Below, piece after piece: positions 23,453 through 29,135 of a DNA stretch of 34,638 nucleotides (position 1 is the stretch's first letter; each line of letters begins with the position of its first letter). The stretch is from positions 1-34,638 of the forward strand of contig DATIKP010000069.1 in assembly GCA_035477455.1 (NCBI GenBank), given 5' to 3'. The notes beneath the pieces are model-generated. The model was given only the letters and a program-made list of their open reading frames with translations. It had not been told where the DNA came from and did not search any database. The position numbers and the translations under genes were made by a program. This DNA comes from Atribacteraceae bacterium (GTDB lineage Bacteria; Atribacterota; Atribacteria; Atribacterales; Atribacteraceae).

Positions 23453-24354
23453 GGTTTCTCCCCCTCTGGTACCGGTGCCTTCCGGGCCACCCGCAAGCGG
23501 GCACTCCGGCTCCGGGGATTTTCCTTGATTTCATTGTTTCCGGTTAGAATCGGCTTTTTGGTTTCGACAACCAAACGGCTGTCCCCCCGAAAAAAAGTTT
23601 TTACCTGACGATCCTCTAATGAATGGTAGCTCAGGATAACGATCTTCCCTCCCGGCTCGAGTAAAGCAGGGACCTTTTCCAAGGCGTTCCTCAGTTCTTC
23701 CAGTTCATGATTGACGAAAATACGGATCGCCTGGAAACTCCGGGTGGCCGGATCGATTTTTCCTCGCGACCATCCCAGTGCCCGGCGGATAATTCCGGCC
23801 AATTCCCCAGTGGTTTCCACCGGCTTTTTTTCCCGGTAACGCACTATAGAACGGGCAATCCGGCGTGATTTTCTTTCCTCTCCATACCGGTATAGAATGT
23901 CTGCCAATTCTCGTTCCGGAAACGTGTTGATCACCTGACCGGCGGACAGCGTCTGACCGGGATCCATCCTCATATCCAACGGACCGTCCTCCCGGAAACT
24001 AAACCCGCGATGCGGGGTATCCAATTGCCGTGAGGATACGCCCAAATCGCATAATATTCCCGAAACTTGCGTGATTTGCAGGGAATCGAGAATCCGGTCA
24101 ATGTCGGAAAACGAACCCTGGATCAAGGTCAACCGGGAACGAAAGGGATCTAACCACCCGCGTGCCGCATCAAGAGCGTCCGGATCCCGATCGATGCCTA
24201 CCAGGCGGGCTTTCCCCGAAAGAACAAGAAAAAGCGCACGAGCATGACCACCTCCCCCCACCGTACAATCCACATAAATTCCATCCGAACGGTGTGCCAG
24301 ACAGCGGCAAACCTCACCAGTCATGACCGGCCGATGAAAGCGGTATTTATTCAT
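23449..24354 (-). CDS. rsmH: 16S rRNA m4C1402 methyltransferase RsmH
   Basis: RsmH N4-methylates C1402 of 16S rRNA in the decoding centre. The 301-residue product shows FHRPVMTGEVCRCL, SAM-binding YVDCTVGGGGHARALF, VGIDRDPDAL, and ILCDLGVSSRQLD. GFSFREDGPLDMRMDP, a family hallmark, follows, then VILSYHSLEDRQVK. Its ATG makes an ATGA overlap with mraZ. Formerly mraW, it nearly always follows mraZ at the head of the dcw cluster. Confidence 0.97.
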   Translation of the reverse strand: MNKYRFHRPVMTGEVCRCLAHRSDGIYVDCTVGGGGHARALFLVLSGKARLVGIDRDPDALDAARGWLDPFRSRLTLIQGSFSDIDRILDSLQITQVSGILCDLGVSSRQLDTPHRGFSFREDGPLDMRMDPGQTLSAGQVINTFPERELADILYRYGEERKSRRIARSIVRYREKKPVETTGELAGIIRRALGWSRGKIDPATRSFQAIRIFVNHELEELRNALEKVPALLEPGGKIVILSYHSLEDRQVKTFFRGDSRLVVETKKPILTGNNEIKENPRSRSARLRVARKAPVPEGEKP

Positions 24355-24782
24355 ATGCCGGTATCCATCAAGCCTTTACCGATTTCCTCATACCGTCCTT
24401 CCATTTCTGTGGAGTAGCGGTTCCATCCCTCTTCGGACCAGATTTCAATGCGGGTTCCCGTACCCACTACCATGGCCTTCCGCTTCAGGTTGGCACGTTC
24501 TCGGAGCGGCCGGGGAATCATGATCCGTCCCAGGGGATCGGGACTGACTGAAGCGGCGTTGGCCAAAAATATCCGGGAAAAACTCCGACCTTCCTCTCTG
24601 GTAAGGGGTAGAGAAGCTATGCTTCGATACAGGCGTTCCCACTCTTCCTGGATAAAGACAAAGATACACCCTTCCAGCCCCCGCGTGAGATAGATCGTAT
24701 CCGAGAGGTTTTTACGGAAATCATCTGGTATAATGATTCTGCCCTTGTTATCGATGGAACGCTGATGATGACCAAGAAACAT
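24351..24782 (-). CDS. mraZ: Transcriptional regulator MraZ
   Basis: MraZ is an AbrB-fold DNA-binding protein that assembles into rings and regulates its own dcw operon. From ATG 24782 the product is 143 residues, the family norm, and begins MFLGHHQRSIDNKGRIIIP. Both tandem swapped-hairpin domains show the D-x-x-G-R motif: DNKGR near residue 11 and DPLGR near residue 82. GGAG lies 7 bases upstream. The frame remains open to 24848, but that start lies upstream of the predicted promoter. A four-copy GTG repeat directly upstream looks like its operator. Confidence 0.96.
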   Translation of the reverse strand: MFLGHHQRSIDNKGRIIIPDDFRKNLSDTIYLTRGLEGCIFVFIQEEWERLYRSIASLPLTREEGRSFSRIFLANAASVSPDPLGRIMIPRPLRERANLKRKAMVVGTGTRIEIWSEEGWNRYSTEMEGRYEEIGKGLMDTGI

Positions 24783-24797
24783 GGGGACTCTCCAAAC

Positions 24798-24833
24798 ACC
24801 CACCTTTTTCCACATTCTATCACTTATTCCCAC
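24798..24833 (-). promoter_or_regulatory. MraZ operator: four GTG repeats with exact 10-base spacing
   Basis: On the minus strand GTGGGA (24833-24828), GTGATA (24823-24818), GTGGAA (24813-24808) and GTGGGT (24803-24798) recur every 10 bases. This is one DNA turn, between the putative -10 element and the mraZ ribosome-binding site and partly over them. MraZ is known to bind tandem GTGGG-type repeats with this kind of spacing upstream of mraZ. Autoregulation of the whole dcw transcript is therefore inferred. Confidence 0.8.
24814..24822 (-). promoter_or_regulatory. Extended -10 promoter for the mraZ-murG operon
   Basis: TGATAGAAT on the minus strand: TG, one base, then TAGAAT (5 of 6 to TATAAT). 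No convincing -35 box is seen 16-18 bases upstream, which is typical of extended -10 promoters. The predicted transcript start is near 24807, giving a 25-base leader. The element lies within MraZ repeats 2 and 3, so MraZ binding would occlude it. Confidence 0.55.
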
Positions 24834-24889
24834 AAATTGATAGATCAACTCCCTTTTTCGCTAGTTTTCCAGATAATTTCGTAGGTTGG

Positions 24890-24951: not shown

Positions 24952-25009
24952 GAACATCCCCATCACCGTTTTTTTACAGAGCACCAAGAATGAGTTTGCA
25001 GAAGGAATC

Positions 25010-25241
25010 TTGATTCTGCTGCAATAAGTAATTTTGCTGCAAAAGAACGAAGAAAGCCCGGGCCTGAGTTGCCTGAATCAGCCGCCGAAATCACCGCATT
25101 TTCGAAGTAAATATGCCAAGGATGCCCTTTTCAGCATCACTGTAACCAGACGTGGTCATTGATGCGTGCGATAAAACACCAGATGAGGCGGGGCTGAGGG
25201 CAACGGGGCCTTGCTGAAATGAGTTTTTGCAGCAAAATCAA
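25010..25241. repeat. Tandem and inverted 18-base repeats centred on TTTTGCWGCAAAA
   Basis: Two 18-base units lie head to tail at 25010-25027 and 25028-25045. An inverted copy at 25224-25241 matches the first at 16 of 18 positions. Two copies contain near-perfect palindromes, TTTTGC-T-GCAAAA (25032-25044) and TTTTGC-A-GCAAAA (25225-25237). A related AATGAGTTT..GCAG element occurs at 24989 and 25218. The outer copies enclose about 230 bases with inverted ends, which would fit a small non-autonomous transposable element or a set of regulator-binding sites. Confidence 0.5.
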
Positions 25242-25279
25242 TCTTCGAATGTGAAGAGGCAGAGGAGTGATGACGACCG

Positions 25280-26017
25280 TCAGGCTTGGATAAACCGGCC
25301 TTCCTGGCCGGATAATGCCAGGCGGAATTCATCCCAAGAGAGACGGTTCATTGAGAACGTGGTGGTGACACAACCGATGTCTGCCAGACAATGCGCATCG
25401 GAGGAGCGAAGCAGGGAGACACCTCTTAGAGAAAAACGGCTTCCGGCCGTGCCGGTATCCATCCGACGGGACACTTCCAGGGCGGGGACTTTCAGGTCCG
25501 GTGGAATGAAGCCCAGAACCTGAATGATGCTGTAGGAAGGCTGGTCGATATGAGCAGGGATCGGGATACCCCCAAACCGCTCAACCCGGCAAAATACTTC
25601 TTCGATACTTAAGGTGAGAGAACGGGTCAGGAGATGATCTTTTTTTTCCAGGATAGTTCCATCCTCGCCAACGACCCACTCTTCCCCCCAAATCGACTCA
25701 TCCAGGGGGAATCGGGGTAGATGCCGCTCAACCTCCCAGGAAAAACCCCGGAGCGCTGTGAGGTCCGGAAAATAACACAGGCAGTGAATTTCCTCTCCGG
25801 TTTCGACTTCCATCCCGGGCACTACCCAAACACCAAATCGCTCGCCGAGAGCGACGGTGACGGCGGTGTTGTCAGAGGTGTTATGATCGGTCACCGCAAT
25901 CATATCGATTTTCTTGGTCAGGGCCTCCAGGATAATCAGCGGGGGAAGCATTTCCCGCTCGGCACAGGGAGAAAGGACACTATGGATATGAAGATCCGCT
26001 TGAAACAACAACCTCAT
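25280..26017 (-). CDS. PHP-domain metal-dependent phosphoesterase
   Basis: PHP-fold proteins hydrolyse phosphoesters with a trinuclear metal site. The 245-residue product has the expected ligands: DLHIHS (His10, His12), AVTDHN (Asp44, His45), GMEVETGEEIHCL (Glu70, His78), IPAHID and the late SSDAH. The substrate is unknown; relatives range from nucleases to 3',5'-bisphosphate phosphatases. Its ATG overlaps the preceding DRTGG gene by 4 bases, so it belongs to the hydrogenase-like cassette. It is the last gene before the repeat-rich island. A small-molecule signalling or nucleotide-cleaving role in the cassette is conceivable but not shown. Confidence 0.85.
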   Translation of the reverse strand: MRLLFQADLHIHSVLSPCAEREMLPPLIILEALTKKIDMIAVTDHNTSDNTAVTVALGERFGVWVVPGMEVETGEEIHCLCYFPDLTALRGFSWEVERHLPRFPLDESIWGEEWVVGEDGTILEKKDHLLTRSLTLSIEEVFCRVERFGGIPIPAHIDQPSYSIIQVLGFIPPDLKVPALEVSRRMDTGTAGSRFSLRGVSLLRSSDAHCLADIGCVTTTFSMNRLSWDEFRLALSGQEGRFIQA

Positions 26018-26364
26018 CTATGCTTTCTGGCACCGGGAATACCCAGTCCCGAGAGAACGGCAACGGCTTGATAGCTGGTCATGGCTGTCCGCAAAAGGAC
26101 AACTCCCTCCTGGCGGGCTTTCGCAAGTGTCTGTTCATTGTGTTCCTGACTGTTGGCGATCACGACGGCGGCCATATCCGTCAACACCGCGACGGCAACA
26201 ATGTTCGGATGAGATTGGATCGTCACCCAAACACATCCCTCAAACGCGTTGGCGATACAATCACTGAGCAGGTCACCACAATAACCGCCGGTTATTTCCC
26301 TCTGCCGGTTGGCGTCCACCAGAATTTCCGCCTGAAGCGGTTCAATGATATCATGAACCCTCAA
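26014..26364 (-). CDS. DRTGG-domain protein (copy nearer the PHP gene)
   Basis: A 116-residue stand-alone DRTGG domain, a fold often found with CBS or phosphotransacetylase-like proteins and of unknown biochemical role. It contains REITGGYCGDLLSDCIA and alternating beta/alpha segments. It aligns end to end with the other DRTGG protein of the cassette (28149-28502), sharing a DLLSD core. That alignment supports the TTG start at 26364 (LRVHDIIEPLQ against the paralogue's LREIQMILEA), with AGGGG 11 bases upstream. The frame also reaches ATG 26388. It overlaps the hydrogenase-like gene by 14 bases. Confidence 0.75.
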   Translation of the reverse strand: MRVHDIIEPLQAEILVDANRQREITGGYCGDLLSDCIANAFEGCVWVTIQSHPNIVAVAVLTDMAAVVIANSQEHNEQTLAKARQEGVVLLRTAMTSYQAVAVLSGLGIPGARKHR

Positions 26365-27694
26365 TGGTCTTTTTTCCCCTTTCATCATTCTTCATGGTCT
26401 GTGGAATTTTGTTGGCCAGGTCAAATATTTCCCGGGACAATTCAAGCATCTTTTCCCGTAACAGAAAAGGACAGTCGATTTCCTGAGCTTTTTCCCGGAC
26501 AACGTCTTCGGCCAGGGAACGGCAGGTGGGAGAACCGCACGCTCCGCAATCCAAACCAGGGAGTCGGTCCAGGATTTTTTCGATGATTTGATACTTTTCA
26601 AGAGCTCTTTTATAGTCCTGATCCAATTTCAGGATATCTCTGGCTATAAAAGGTTTTTTCCGACGGAAGGCATCTTGTCTGGCCAGTTTATCCCATTCTT
26701 TTTCTTCAATCGCCTGAAACACGGAATATTTCCTGATCAGGCGATTGACGTTGACTTTGGCCAGGAAGGGGTTTTGAACCGCCAACACGCCACCGATGCA
26801 TCCTCCGACACAGGCCTGAGCTTCGCAGTACACAAGATTGTTGAGTTCGCCCATTTCAATCTTTTCAAAAACGGACATAACGTCATGAATGCCGTCAACG
26901 GCGACATACTCGCCCTCATCCAGTGATTCCTGTTCCCCGCCTGAACGGGCCCAGCCAATTCCTTTCCAGCTCGCTCGCTGGATACCGGAAATATCCTGCA
27001 ACTTTTCAGTCATATTGATGATCAAAGGATAAATCTTGGCCATGGAAATCGCACCGTCTATCCTTTCGAGATCTCCAACGCTTTGCCGTATTTCCGTAAC
27101 CTTGGCCGGGCAGGGGGTAATGAAAAAAACCCCGATTTCTTCGGGAGAAAATCCTTTCTCCAGCGCCCGGGACCGGGCGATACGGGCCGCAACCCCCAAG
27201 GGTGAATCAAGGGGGAGAAGATTGCCGGTTAGTGAAGGAAACTTTTCTTCTGCCAGACGAACTACCGCCGGACAGGCCGAAGAAATGAGAGGTGGCGGAA
27301 GATGGCCACTCCGCAGGATTTTTTTGATTTCTTCGGCAAGAATCTCCGCTCCGCGGGCCACTTCGTATACATCGGAAAACCCAAGTTCCAGCAGTCCGTA
27401 CAGAAGTTTTCCCAGGGTAAACCCGGTGGAAAATTGCGCGTAAAAAGCGGGAGCGGGAAGAGCGATGGAATAACGATAATGCCCGATCGCTTCGAGGGGA
27501 TCAGACTGGGCGTATTTCGCGTGGTTGGGACAGGTCCTGATACATTCTCCGCAATCGATGCACCGCTCTTCGTCTATCCTGGCTTTGCCTCCTTTGACCC
27601 GGATGGCCTCGGTCGGACACCGCCGGATACAATGGGTACATCCCTTGCATTTTTCCTCATCGAGGAGAACCGAATGACATAGCTTCTCCTTCAA
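26351..27694 (-). CDS. [FeFe]-hydrogenase-like protein of sensory type
   Basis: The 447-residue product starts with two 4Fe-4S ferredoxin motifs (Cys16-19-22-26 and 45-48-51-55). The [FeFe]-hydrogenase large-subunit core follows. Motif L1 reads SSACP (138-142), L2 TPCPAK (193-198) and L3 EAQACVGGC (291-299). All four predicted H-cluster cysteines (141, 195, 295, 299) and Lys198 are kept. The proton-relay cysteine of catalytic enzymes (first Cys of TSCCP) is Ala140 and the usual Met of L3 is Gln293. A C-terminal 4Fe-4S domain follows (C383-x2-C386-x4-C391-x16-C408). These traits fit sensory HydS-like proteins. The TTG start overlaps the HATPase stop (TTGA). Confidence 0.88.
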   Translation of the reverse strand: MKEKLCHSVLLDEEKCKGCTHCIRRCPTEAIRVKGGKARIDEERCIDCGECIRTCPNHAKYAQSDPLEAIGHYRYSIALPAPAFYAQFSTGFTLGKLLYGLLELGFSDVYEVARGAEILAEEIKKILRSGHLPPPLISSACPAVVRLAEEKFPSLTGNLLPLDSPLGVAARIARSRALEKGFSPEEIGVFFITPCPAKVTEIRQSVGDLERIDGAISMAKIYPLIINMTEKLQDISGIQRASWKGIGWARSGGEQESLDEGEYVAVDGIHDVMSVFEKIEMGELNNLVYCEAQACVGGCIGGVLAVQNPFLAKVNVNRLIRKYSVFQAIEEKEWDKLARQDAFRRKKPFIARDILKLDQDYKRALEKYQIIEKILDRLPGLDCGACGSPTCRSLAEDVVREKAQEIDCPFLLREKMLELSREIFDLANKIPQTMKNDERGKKTIEGS

Positions 27695-28152
27695 ACTCCA
27701 CCACCATTTTTCACGGAGTTCAGGAAAAAATCCATCATGACCCGGGTCCCTTCCCCAACCCTGGAATCGATTTCTATCCGATCGGAACATTTCCTCATGT
27801 TCGCCAATCCGTAACCCGCTCCAAAACCCATTTCCCGAATATGAGGGGGGGCGGTCGAATATCCCTCCTGAAATGCCAGGTCGAGATCTGGAATACCCGG
27901 GCCTTCATCATCAATGACGATGTGAACCTTCTCGGGGGTGATAACCGTCCTGAAGCTTCCTTTGTAGGCATGAATCACAACGTTCATTTCCGCCTCATAG
28001 GCGGCGATCACGATACGGCGGATAAACGGGGGTGGAAATCCGGCTTGGAGCAGAAGTTTTTTCAACTCCCCGGATATATCGCCCGCGCTCTGAAAATCCG
28101 CTCCGACTATCTCCCGGGAGGCCTCAAACAAGGGTTTAGGCTCAATGATCAC
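27691..28152 (-). CDS. RsbW/SpoIIAB-like serine kinase-type HATPase
   Basis: A 153-residue GHKL ATPase of the anti-sigma-factor serine kinase class. The N-box is AAYEAEMNVVIHAY (Glu53, Asn57), the G1 box DDEGPGIPD (81-89) and the G2 box MGFGAGYGLANMRK (108-121). There is no histidine-phosphotransfer domain and no sensor domain, so it probably acts on a protein partner. No sigma factor or anti-anti-sigma gene is in the window. It overlaps the hydrogenase-like gene by 4 bases, which suggests the redox protein is its partner. The start GTG 28152 overlaps the DRTGG stop. Confidence 0.88.
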   Translation of the reverse strand: MIIEPKPLFEASREIVGADFQSAGDISGELKKLLLQAGFPPPFIRRIVIAAYEAEMNVVIHAYKGSFRTVITPEKVHIVIDDEGPGIPDLDLAFQEGYSTAPPHIREMGFGAGYGLANMRKCSDRIEIDSRVGEGTRVMMDFFLNSVKNGGGV

Positions 28153-28502
28153 TTGATTTCACTGCAACCCCTGATCCCGTGCCGATAGAGCCTACCACAG
28201 GCTTCATACATGGGAAGACGGGTCGTCAGTATTGGAATCTTTTTGATGCCGGCCAATTCCACCGTGGCCGTTTCCGGCTTCTTCCCACGGACAAAAACGA
28301 TCCCGATAAGATCGCTCATTTCTGCGGTCCTGATGACCTGAGGATTCGTCAGGCCCGTCAACAGCAGGGATTTCTCTTTGGTAAACGCGAGAACATCACT
28401 GAGTAAATCGCTCCCGCACACCGAGGATGGTTCCCGGTCGAGCCACTGGTCACCGACCAGAACATCGGCTTCCAAAATCATCTGAATCTCCCTTAAGTTC
28501 AT
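28149..28502 (-). CDS. DRTGG-domain protein (copy at the head of the cassette)
   Basis: A 117-residue single-domain protein related to the copy at 26014-26364: both begin with an LR.......L.A. segment, share a GxDLLSD core and have the same length. Here the TGG of the domain's name is replaced (REPSSVCGSDLLSDVLA), so the sites may differ in ligand. ATG 28502 has a G-rich site just upstream. A 9-base gap follows the SPOR gene. The function is unknown. Paired DRTGG proteins around an Fe-S protein suggest a complex, but that is inference. Confidence 0.75.
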   Translation of the reverse strand: MNLREIQMILEADVLVGDQWLDREPSSVCGSDLLSDVLAFTKEKSLLLTGLTNPQVIRTAEMSDLIGIVFVRGKKPETATVELAGIKKIPILTTRLPMYEACGRLYRHGIRGCSEIK

Positions 28503-28511
28503 GGACCCCCC

Positions 28512-29135
28512 CTACTGTCCGGCGAATGACTCGATGCCCTGGTTTCTCAATTGCTGGACAATCCGTCTCGCTTCCTCCAACGAAGGCAGGCCGGGGATCT
28601 GGACCTTGAACACTGCTGCGTCTTGACGAAGAACTGGTTGAAAACCGAGTTGGCGCAGGGATTCAAGCATGCGATCGGCATTCTCCCGCCGAGAGAAAGC
28701 ACCGGCCTGGACAAAGAACGCTCCCGATGGCGCTTGGATTACTGGAGCGGGTGTTGGAGAAGCAGCGGCTACTGGGACAGGAGGGGTGGAAACCGTTACC
28801 GGAGTGGGGACCGGGGCTGCCGGTACGCCGGTCGCGGCTGGGGCAATAATTTGCTCAACGGGTCCAACGGCGGGAGCAACCTCCCCTTCCTGGAAGCCGG
28901 GCACCGTTGTCGGATCAGCGGGTCGCGCCAGTCGCTCCAATTCGGTCAGAAGATCAGCGGCTCTCCGTTCTCCGGGAACATCTTCAATCTGCAAGGATGT
29001 ACCGAGTAAAAACCCGGTATACGCATCAAGGTCACCGCGGGCGATAAAAAAAGCCACCATGATGACCAGAAAACATCCCATCAGAAACACGACGTGTTCG
29101 ACTGGGTCCTTCTGTCTGAGAAAAGGATTGTTCAT
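28512..29135 (-). CDS. Membrane-anchored SPOR-domain protein
   Basis: SPOR domains bind glycan strands stripped of stem peptides, which concentrates such proteins at the septum. The 207-residue product has a short N-terminal tail, one transmembrane segment (about 17-34), and a Pro/Ala/Val/Thr-rich linker (about 80-145). The C-terminal SPOR domain begins AFFVQAGAFSRRENADRML, continues through VFKVQIPGLPSLEEARRIV and ends IESFAGQ. The design is like FtsN/DamX, but no other FtsN feature is visible. Its ATG overlaps the valS stop by 4 bases. It lies upstream of the division cluster and may be the division-linked member of this operon. Confidence 0.85.
   Translation of the reverse strand: MNNPFLRQKDPVEHVVFLMGCFLVIMVAFFIARGDLDAYTGFLLGTSLQIEDVPGERRAADLLTELERLARPADPTTVPGFQEGEVAPAVGPVEQIIAPAATGVPAAPVPTPVTVSTPPVPVAAASPTPAPVIQAPSGAFFVQAGAFSRRENADRMLESLRQLGFQPVLRQDAAVFKVQIPGLPSLEEARRIVQQLRNQGIESFAGQ

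What the first reader, a model, noticed from the sequence alone, without database searches (positions are those of the whole stretch)
25280..28502. Five-gene redox-signalling cassette upstream of the division cluster
A DRTGG protein, RsbW-like kinase, hydrogenase-like Fe-S protein, second DRTGG protein and PHP phosphoesterase are coupled by 4- to 14-base overlaps, so they are probably made in fixed ratio. Similar gene sets appear in anaerobic Firmicutes and related phyla, but I know of no assigned function. A sensor (hydrogenase-like), a protein kinase or anti-sigma-like switch and a phosphoesterase would make a self-contained signalling system responding to H2 or ferredoxin redox state. Its position directly before mraZ raises the possibility of read-through into division genes.
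Basis: partly seen in the sequence, partly recalled or inferred. Interest (0 to 1): 0.75.

Follow-up and report, generated by a model that had tools for sequence, protein, structure and literature searches.

The report
Hydrogenase-gated kinase module, five genes
Five tightly joined genes in an uncultured Atribacterota bacterium form a signalling module, conserved in fixed order in Atribacterota and Bacillota, in which a hydrogenase-type H2 sensor appears to control a protein kinase; it names candidate partners for a class of sensor hydrogenase whose partners are unknown.

Summary
Five minus-strand genes (28502-25280) overlap by 4, 4, 14 and 4 bases: DRTGG-1, SpoIIAB-like GHKL kinase, [FeFe]-hydrogenase, DRTGG-2, PHP phosphoesterase. 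The "hydrogenase-like Fe-S protein" is a group D (M2e) putative sensory [FeFe]-hydrogenase: it keeps all H-cluster cysteines, the C-terminal Cx2Cx4Cx16C cluster and the group-D-specific proton path, and groups with the TamHydS-type enzyme. That class is known and already called sensory; its signalling partners are not. Of 68 related loci with room, 60 hold all five genes in order; 33 of 42 non-Atribacterota loci with room sit upstream of a bifurcating-hydrogenase operon. New here: (1) natural DRTGG-kinase fusions; (2) in the other main branch of the phylum the hydrogenase is missing and the same kinase is fused to a CBS pair in an otherwise intact cassette, a natural sensor swap; (3) no STAS protein, the usual kinase substrate, was detected in the genome, while both DRTGG proteins carry an invariant serine. 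Best reading: HydS gates the kinase, DRTGG proteins are its likely substrates, and the output is regulation of H2 metabolism; these steps are inferred. The division-gene link is synteny within one order; here a ~240-bp dispersed repeat separates the cassette from mraZ.

The parts
28149..28502 (-). DRTGG-1 (117 aa), first gene; invariant Ser35 at 28398-28400, at the N-terminus of a helix in the motif CGxDLxSDvLA
27691..28152 (-). GHKL (SpoIIAB-like) kinase, 153 aa; Glu53/Asn57 (27996-27982), D82xGPGI, R106 and the GFGAG motif; the named residues invariant in 92 of 92 homologues except P85
26351..27694 (-). HydS: group D (M2e) [FeFe]-hydrogenase, TTG start, 447 aa; 2x[4Fe-4S] at the N-terminus, H-cluster ligands C141, C195, C295, C299, C-terminal Cx2Cx4Cx16C cluster (C383-C408), group-D proton path E254/E291/S251/D267
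26014..26364 (-). DRTGG-2 (start TTG 26364, or ATG 26388); invariant Ser42 (26265-26263, numbered from the ATG) and Thr56
25280..26017 (-). PHP-family metallo-phosphoesterase (245 aa), HxH / DH / E / H / H / DxH metal ligands kept; nearest folds EndoQ and RNase AM
28512..29135 (-). Neighbour: SPOR-domain protein, upstream of the cassette in the own order and, with Rex between, in the other branch of the phylum
24351..24848 (-). Neighbour: mraZ, first gene of the dcw cluster; follows the cassette in the order of the window
25005..25246 (.). Dispersed repeat element (at least 39 other copies in this genome, 89-95% identical) with imperfect 30-nt terminal inverted repeats, lying between PHP and mraZ

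Best explanation
The five genes encode an H2/redox signalling module. (1) HydS, a slow group D [FeFe]-hydrogenase, reacts with H2 and changes state [class behaviour published for TamHydS; membership shown here by sequence only]. (2) HydS acts on the SpoIIAB-like kinase next to it and sets its activity [inferred; supported by near-constant linkage and by the CBS-for-HydS swap]. (3) The kinase, coupled most closely to DRTGG-1, phosphorylates the DRTGG proteins on their invariant serines (DRTGG-1 Ser35, DRTGG-2 Ser42); these take the place of the STAS switch proteins, which were not detected in this genome [inferred]. (4) PHP hydrolyses either the phosphorylated product or a nucleotide ligand of the switch [inferred, weakest step]. 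(5) The output adjusts electron-bifurcating hydrogenase (H2/NADH/ferredoxin) function, since the same cassette precedes hyd genes in most Bacillota and in the other branch of Atribacterota [linkage shown, effect inferred].
For: Fixed five-gene order in 60 of 68 loci with room. HydS forms one clade with the Thermoanaerobacter enzyme and apart from groups A and C, 99/99; in L027 the cysteines sit at positions 20 and 379 exactly as published for TamHydS. Natural DRTGG-1-kinase fusion in five Tepidanaerobacteraceae loci. Sensor swap: HydS in 25 of 25 genomes of the own order and 0 of 25 others in the phylum, yet 12 fetched loci of those others keep DRTGG-1, kinase and DRTGG-2 (PHP intact, or broken or cut off in two), the kinase ORF being 309-319 aa, with two CBS domains in the two scanned. 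Kinase catalytic residues invariant 92/92; Ser35 90/90; Ser42 89/89 across both cassette types. Kinase profile hits SpoIIAB first. STAS not found in the own genome or in any of 22 high-quality genomes of the phylum; STAS_2 not found in the own genome. Hyd genes downstream in 33 of 42 non-Atribacterota loci with room.
Against: No phosphorylation or binding data exist. Six of 68 loci lack only PHP, so PHP is not essential to the module. One locus (L022) lacks a detected kinase and one (L031) lacks DRTGG-2 and PHP. The invariant serines could be structural helix caps or ligand contacts. In the window's order the cassette is not next to a hyd operon. In C. thermocellum, HydS (Cthe_0335) and the hydABC genes (Cthe_0340-0342) do not respond alike (PMC3478167), so simple co-expression does not hold. 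The sensor swap and the SpoIIE correlation each rest on a single split in the phylum.
Confidence: 0.5

Rival explanations
1. Partner switching on an unlinked target: the kinase acts as a classical anti-sigma factor or kinase on a sigma factor or switch protein encoded elsewhere, and the DRTGG proteins are nucleotide-binding regulators of the kinase rather than its substrates.
For: The kinase profile is closest to SpoIIAB. DRTGG-1 is near in fold to the DRTGG regulatory region of CBS-pyrophosphatase, solved with nucleotides (my knowledge). In the other branch of the phylum the kinase carries CBS domains, usual adenylate sensors.
Against: No STAS or STAS_2 protein was found in the own genome, and no sigma factor lies in the cassette. 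Invariant Ser35 and Ser42 lie outside the part of the DRTGG fold that matches the pyrophosphatase by sequence.
Confidence: 0.25
2. Hydrogenase assembly or allosteric control rather than signalling: HydS, the GHKL ATPase, the DRTGG pair and PHP are accessory factors for assembly or direct activity control of the bifurcating hydrogenase complex HydABC(DE).
For: Hyd genes downstream in 33 of 42 non-Atribacterota loci, including a second GHKL ATPase between HydC and HydB.
Against: In the whole order of the window the cassette is detached from hyd genes yet kept intact. Nine non-Atribacterota loci with room have no hyd genes detected nearby. A CBS pair can stand in for HydS, which fits a sensor better than an assembly factor.
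Confidence: 0.15
3. Redox control of cell division by read-through from the cassette into mraZ and the dcw cluster.
For: The cassette precedes mraZ in 14 of 14 loci of the own order with room, the gap to the mraZ ORF being as small as 6 bases; no intrinsic terminator was found in the gap of this window.
Against: Confined to one order; elsewhere the cassette mostly precedes hyd genes. In the window the gap is about 430 bases and mostly a multi-copy repeat. The terminator scan is weak evidence, and no expression data exist.
Confidence: 0.1

Closest known systems
Group D (M2e) putative sensory [FeFe]-hydrogenase, TamHydS of Thermoanaerobacter mathranii (PMC8163306, PMC10407848, PMC13104023)
   Same: Same clade as its genus relative, same cofactor ligands, same C-terminal Cx2Cx4Cx16C cluster, same E-E-S-D proton path, no PAS; flanked by a kinase-like ATPase
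   Different: TamHydS lies upstream of a bifurcating hydrogenase, whereas in the window's order the gene is detached from hyd genes and lies before mraZ; the papers read name the neighbouring ATPase but I found no mention of the DRTGG pair or PHP, and they call the interaction partners unidentified
Group C (M2f) sensory hydrogenase, TmHydS type
   Same: Slow hydrogenase with an extra C-terminal cluster; two copies in this genome, each beside a SpoIIE-type phosphatase
   Different: Group C carries a PAS domain and its neighbour here is a phosphatase; group D has no PAS and its neighbour is a kinase
SpoIIAB / RsbW partner-switching modules
   Same: GHKL serine-kinase fold with the same Glu/Asn pair; small partner proteins encoded beside it
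   Different: No STAS partner detected in the genome and no sigma factor in the cassette; DRTGG proteins take that position
CBS-DRTGG regulatory region of inorganic pyrophosphatase (3l2b, 3l31) and AF1212 (2ioj)
   Same: Same DRTGG fold (TM about 0.7-0.8); CBS and DRTGG occur together, as in the CBS-type cassettes
   Different: Here DRTGG are free-standing proteins and the N-terminal half with the SD motif does not match by sequence
PHP enzymes EndoQ and RNase AM
   Same: PHP fold and metal ligands
   Different: About 20% identity; substrate cannot be inferred

Membership tests
Group D (M2e) [FeFe]-hydrogenase | Four H-cluster cysteine ligands present | tested here: met
   C141, C195, C295, C299 invariant
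Group D (M2e) [FeFe]-hydrogenase | Group A proton-transfer cysteine absent (Ala in L1 motif) | tested here: met
   SSACP in window; Ala in 89% of 81 rows
Group D (M2e) [FeFe]-hydrogenase | C-terminal Cx2Cx4Cx16C cluster, no PAS | tested here: met
   C383/C386/C391/C408; PF04060 hit, no PAS hit
Group D (M2e) [FeFe]-hydrogenase | Group-D proton path E252, E289, S249, D265 (TamHydS numbering) | tested here: met
   E254, E291, S251, D267 in window; both Glu and the Asp invariant in 81 rows
Group D (M2e) [FeFe]-hydrogenase | Falls in the group D clade, apart from A and C | tested here: met
   99/99 support, 98% of bootstrap trees
Group D (M2e) [FeFe]-hydrogenase | H2 oxidation or evolution at low rate | not testable with these tools
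   needs purified protein
SpoIIAB/RsbW partner switch | GHKL serine-kinase fold closest to SpoIIAB, catalytic Glu and Mg-binding Asn kept | tested here: met
   SpoIIAB E 1e-11; E53 and N57 92/92
SpoIIAB/RsbW partner switch | STAS-domain substrate encoded in the genome | tested here: not met
   PF01740 and PF13466 not found in the own genome, 96% complete
SpoIIAB/RsbW partner switch | Linked sigma factor | tested here: not met
   none among the five genes or the two flanking genes scanned against Pfam; sigma factors elsewhere in the genome not searched
SpoIIAB/RsbW partner switch | Serine phosphotransfer to a partner | not testable with these tools
   needs a biochemical assay
Group C (M2f) sensory hydrogenase | C-terminal PAS domain | tested here: not met
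   absent in the window protein, present in the two own-genome group C proteins
DRTGG-domain proteins | DRTGG fold | tested here: met
   DRTGG-1 model pLDDT 96, best PDB hit AF1212, TM 0.83; DRTGG-2 by profile only
PHP phosphoesterases | PHP fold with metal-binding His/Asp/Glu set | tested here: met

The most novel reading that the evidence does not exclude
A kinase-switch system without STAS proteins, in which interchangeable sensors (a hydrogenase or a CBS nucleotide sensor) control a SpoIIAB-like kinase that writes onto paired DRTGG proteins, while a second hydrogenase (group C, PAS) controls a SpoIIE-type phosphatase that erases the mark: two hydrogenases of opposite sign on one switch. 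In the phylum the group D kinase cassette and the SpoIIE phosphatases coincide in 25 of 25 genomes of the own order, and the 20 group C hydrogenase hits listed for those genomes at E 1e-40 all lie on the same contig within about 2 kb of a SpoIIE gene.
Probability: 0.2. Interest if true: 0.85.

Novelty: new variant of a known kind. Interest (0 to 1): 0.62.

Why it matters
A 2026 study of TamHydS found that the C-terminal cluster does not respond to H2 and stated that identifying the interaction partners of group D hydrogenases is critical to explain their signalling (PMC13104023). The conserved cassette names four candidate partners, shows where another sensor stands in for the hydrogenase on the same kinase, and points to two specific serines to assay. 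If right, it would show how fermenting anaerobes read H2 to tune electron-bifurcating hydrogenases, and would extend kinase switching beyond STAS proteins.

Tried and rejected
Pyrophosphatase or nucleotide metabolism as the main role: only the C-terminal half of the DRTGG proteins matches the pyrophosphatase region, and no catalytic pyrophosphatase domain is present. Reading the third protein as a group C (PAS) sensor or as a catalytic group A enzyme: rejected by domain content and tree. A sigma-factor switch of the standard kind: not favoured, since STAS and STAS_2 were not detected. An RNA element or riboswitch between cassette and mraZ: no Rfam match. A mixed alignment meant for folding the DRTGG-kinase fusion misaligned the DRTGG rows onto the kinase and was not used. 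A literature search for DRTGG with hydrogenase found only a Desulfovibrio mutant-library study, not read.
Full report
Observation. The five ORFs are present on the minus strand as described. Overlaps of 4, 4, 14 and 4 bases are correct when HydS starts at TTG 27694 and DRTGG-2 at TTG 26364; conserved HydS residues begin at position 7 of that reading. Upstream, a SPOR-domain gene ends 9 bases before DRTGG-1.

Identity of the parts. DRTGG-1 and DRTGG-2 match PF07085 (8e-7; 1.5e-4, the second under the curated cut-off). A structure model of DRTGG-1 (pLDDT 96) is closest to AF1212 and to the CBS-DRTGG region of clostridial pyrophosphatase. The second protein is a GHKL ATPase whose family profile finds SpoIIAB first (E 1e-11), with RsbW (3e-4) and a histidine kinase (6e-4) far behind. 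The fifth is a PHP phosphoesterase (model pLDDT 97; nearest EndoQ and others including RNase AM) with its metal ligands kept.

The hydrogenase. The third protein has two N-terminal [4Fe-4S] sites, an H-domain and a C-terminal FeS domain. All four H-cluster cysteines are present; the group A proton-transfer cysteine is Ala (SSACP). The published features of group D are met: Cx2Cx4Cx16C (PMC6984386), no PAS, and the proton path E252-E289-S249-D265 of TamHydS (PMC10407848), here E254, E291, S251, D267, the two Glu and the Asp being invariant in 81 sequences. The Thermoanaerobacter wiegelii homologue L027 has cysteines at 20 and 379, the positions mutated in TamHydS. In a tree of 46 proteins the window sequence falls in group D with L027, 99/99, apart from groups A and C. 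It is therefore a group D [FeFe]-hydrogenase by sequence; activity is untested.

Conservation of the set. 80 loci were fetched with HydS; they come from Atribacterota, Bacillota and one Thermodesulfobacteriota (where PHP lies some kb away), and the fetch kept only the closest relatives, so the sample is biased toward them. Of 68 with room for all five genes, 60 were scored as having all five; six lack only PHP, L031 lacks DRTGG-2 and PHP, and L022 lacks PHP and a detected kinase. The automatic assignment also missed the DRTGG of L022, which one search shows directly upstream of its HydS. Of 42 non-Atribacterota loci with at least 4.5 kb downstream, 33 show hyd-type genes next (in L027: HydC, a second GHKL ATPase, a [2Fe-2S] protein, HydB, HydA). 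This link of group D hydrogenases with a kinase and bifurcating hydrogenases was noted before (PMC3561251; PMC8163306); I found no description of the DRTGG pair or PHP as part of it.

Fusions. In five Tepidanaerobacteraceae loci (L028, L032, L035, L036, L045) DRTGG-1 and the kinase are one protein of about 270 aa, which points to direct coupling of the two.

Sensor swap. HydS is found in 25 of 25 genomes of the window's order and in none of 25 others of the phylum at E 1e-40. A DRTGG pair nevertheless occurs in 12 of those others, and a single DRTGG in one more. Fetched regions show DRTGG-1, a 309-319 aa protein with the same kinase at its end, DRTGG-2, PHP and, where the contig reaches, a second GHKL ATPase; in the two read in full, hyd genes follow and a Rex-type gene and the SPOR gene lie upstream. 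In the two proteins scanned, the added part is a CBS pair. PHP is cut off in L132 and short in L133. A tree of DRTGG-1, kinase and DRTGG-2 together puts the CBS type and the HydS type of the phylum in separate, fully supported clades; their sisterhood is weak, 66/80, so whether HydS was replaced or the two types were acquired separately is open.

Residues. Kinase residues Y52, E53, E55, N57, D82, G84, G86, R106 and the GFGAG motif are invariant in 92 of 92. DRTGG-1 Ser35 is invariant in 90 of 90 and DRTGG-2 Ser42 and Thr56 in 89 of 89, across both cassette types. Ser35 lies at the start of helix 34-40 in the model, and this half of the domain does not match known DRTGG structures well by sequence. 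That it is a phosphate acceptor is inference.

Substrate question. STAS (PF01740) was not found in the own genome or in any of 22 high-quality genomes of the phylum, though found in 10 control genomes and in 5 other genomes of the phylum; STAS_2 was not found in the own genome. SpoIIE-type phosphatases occur in 25 of 25 genomes of the order and in 2 of 25 others. The own genome has two group C hydrogenases with PAS, each next to a SpoIIE gene; comparing coordinates, the 20 group C hits listed for the order at E 1e-40 lie on the same contig as a SpoIIE gene, within about 2 kb. This suggests kinase and phosphatase arms under two hydrogenases, but both traits follow the same single split of the phylum, so the correlation counts as one event.

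Division genes. In the window's order the cassette is followed by mraZ in all 14 loci with room; L003 and L017 end within 1 kb of PHP without reaching it, and L004, L008 and L015 end in or before PHP. No terminator was found and no Rfam family. Synteny is real; regulation of division is not shown.

Mechanism. I commit to HydS gating the kinase with the DRTGG proteins as likely substrates and the hydrogenase system as output. Shown: membership, order, fusions, swap, invariant residues, STAS not detected. Inferred: gating, phosphotransfer, PHP role, output. In C. thermocellum, Cthe_0335 and Cthe_0340-0342 are reported to respond differently to ethanol shock and growth phase (PMC3478167), so the cassette is not simply co-expressed with hydABC there.

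Noticed in passing
   Followed up: partly
L089 1308-4183 and L092 151-3020 (own genome): Two group C PAS-bearing sensory [FeFe]-hydrogenases, each directly followed by a SpoIIE-type PP2C phosphatase; the first lies downstream of Rex, HydC, HydB and HydA.
   Followed up: partly
L124 7586-8542, L131 7656-8588, and similar 309-319 aa ORFs in L125-L130 and L132-L135: CBS-CBS-kinase fusion standing in for HydS in the other branch of the phylum (CBS confirmed by Pfam in L124 and L131 only).
   Followed up: yes
L027 12984-13550 and equivalents: A second GHKL ATPase between HydC and the [2Fe-2S] protein in the hyd operon, with an Asp where the cassette kinase has its Glu; role unknown.
   Followed up: no
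L040, L058, L060, L074, upstream of DRTGG-1: A SPOR-like gene also lies upstream of the cassette in a group of Bacillota MAGs, as in Atribacterota.
   Followed up: no
G009:C43: A STAS, SpoIIE and strong HATPase_c_2 (RsbW-type) set on one contig of a relative, either true partner switching or contamination.
   Followed up: no
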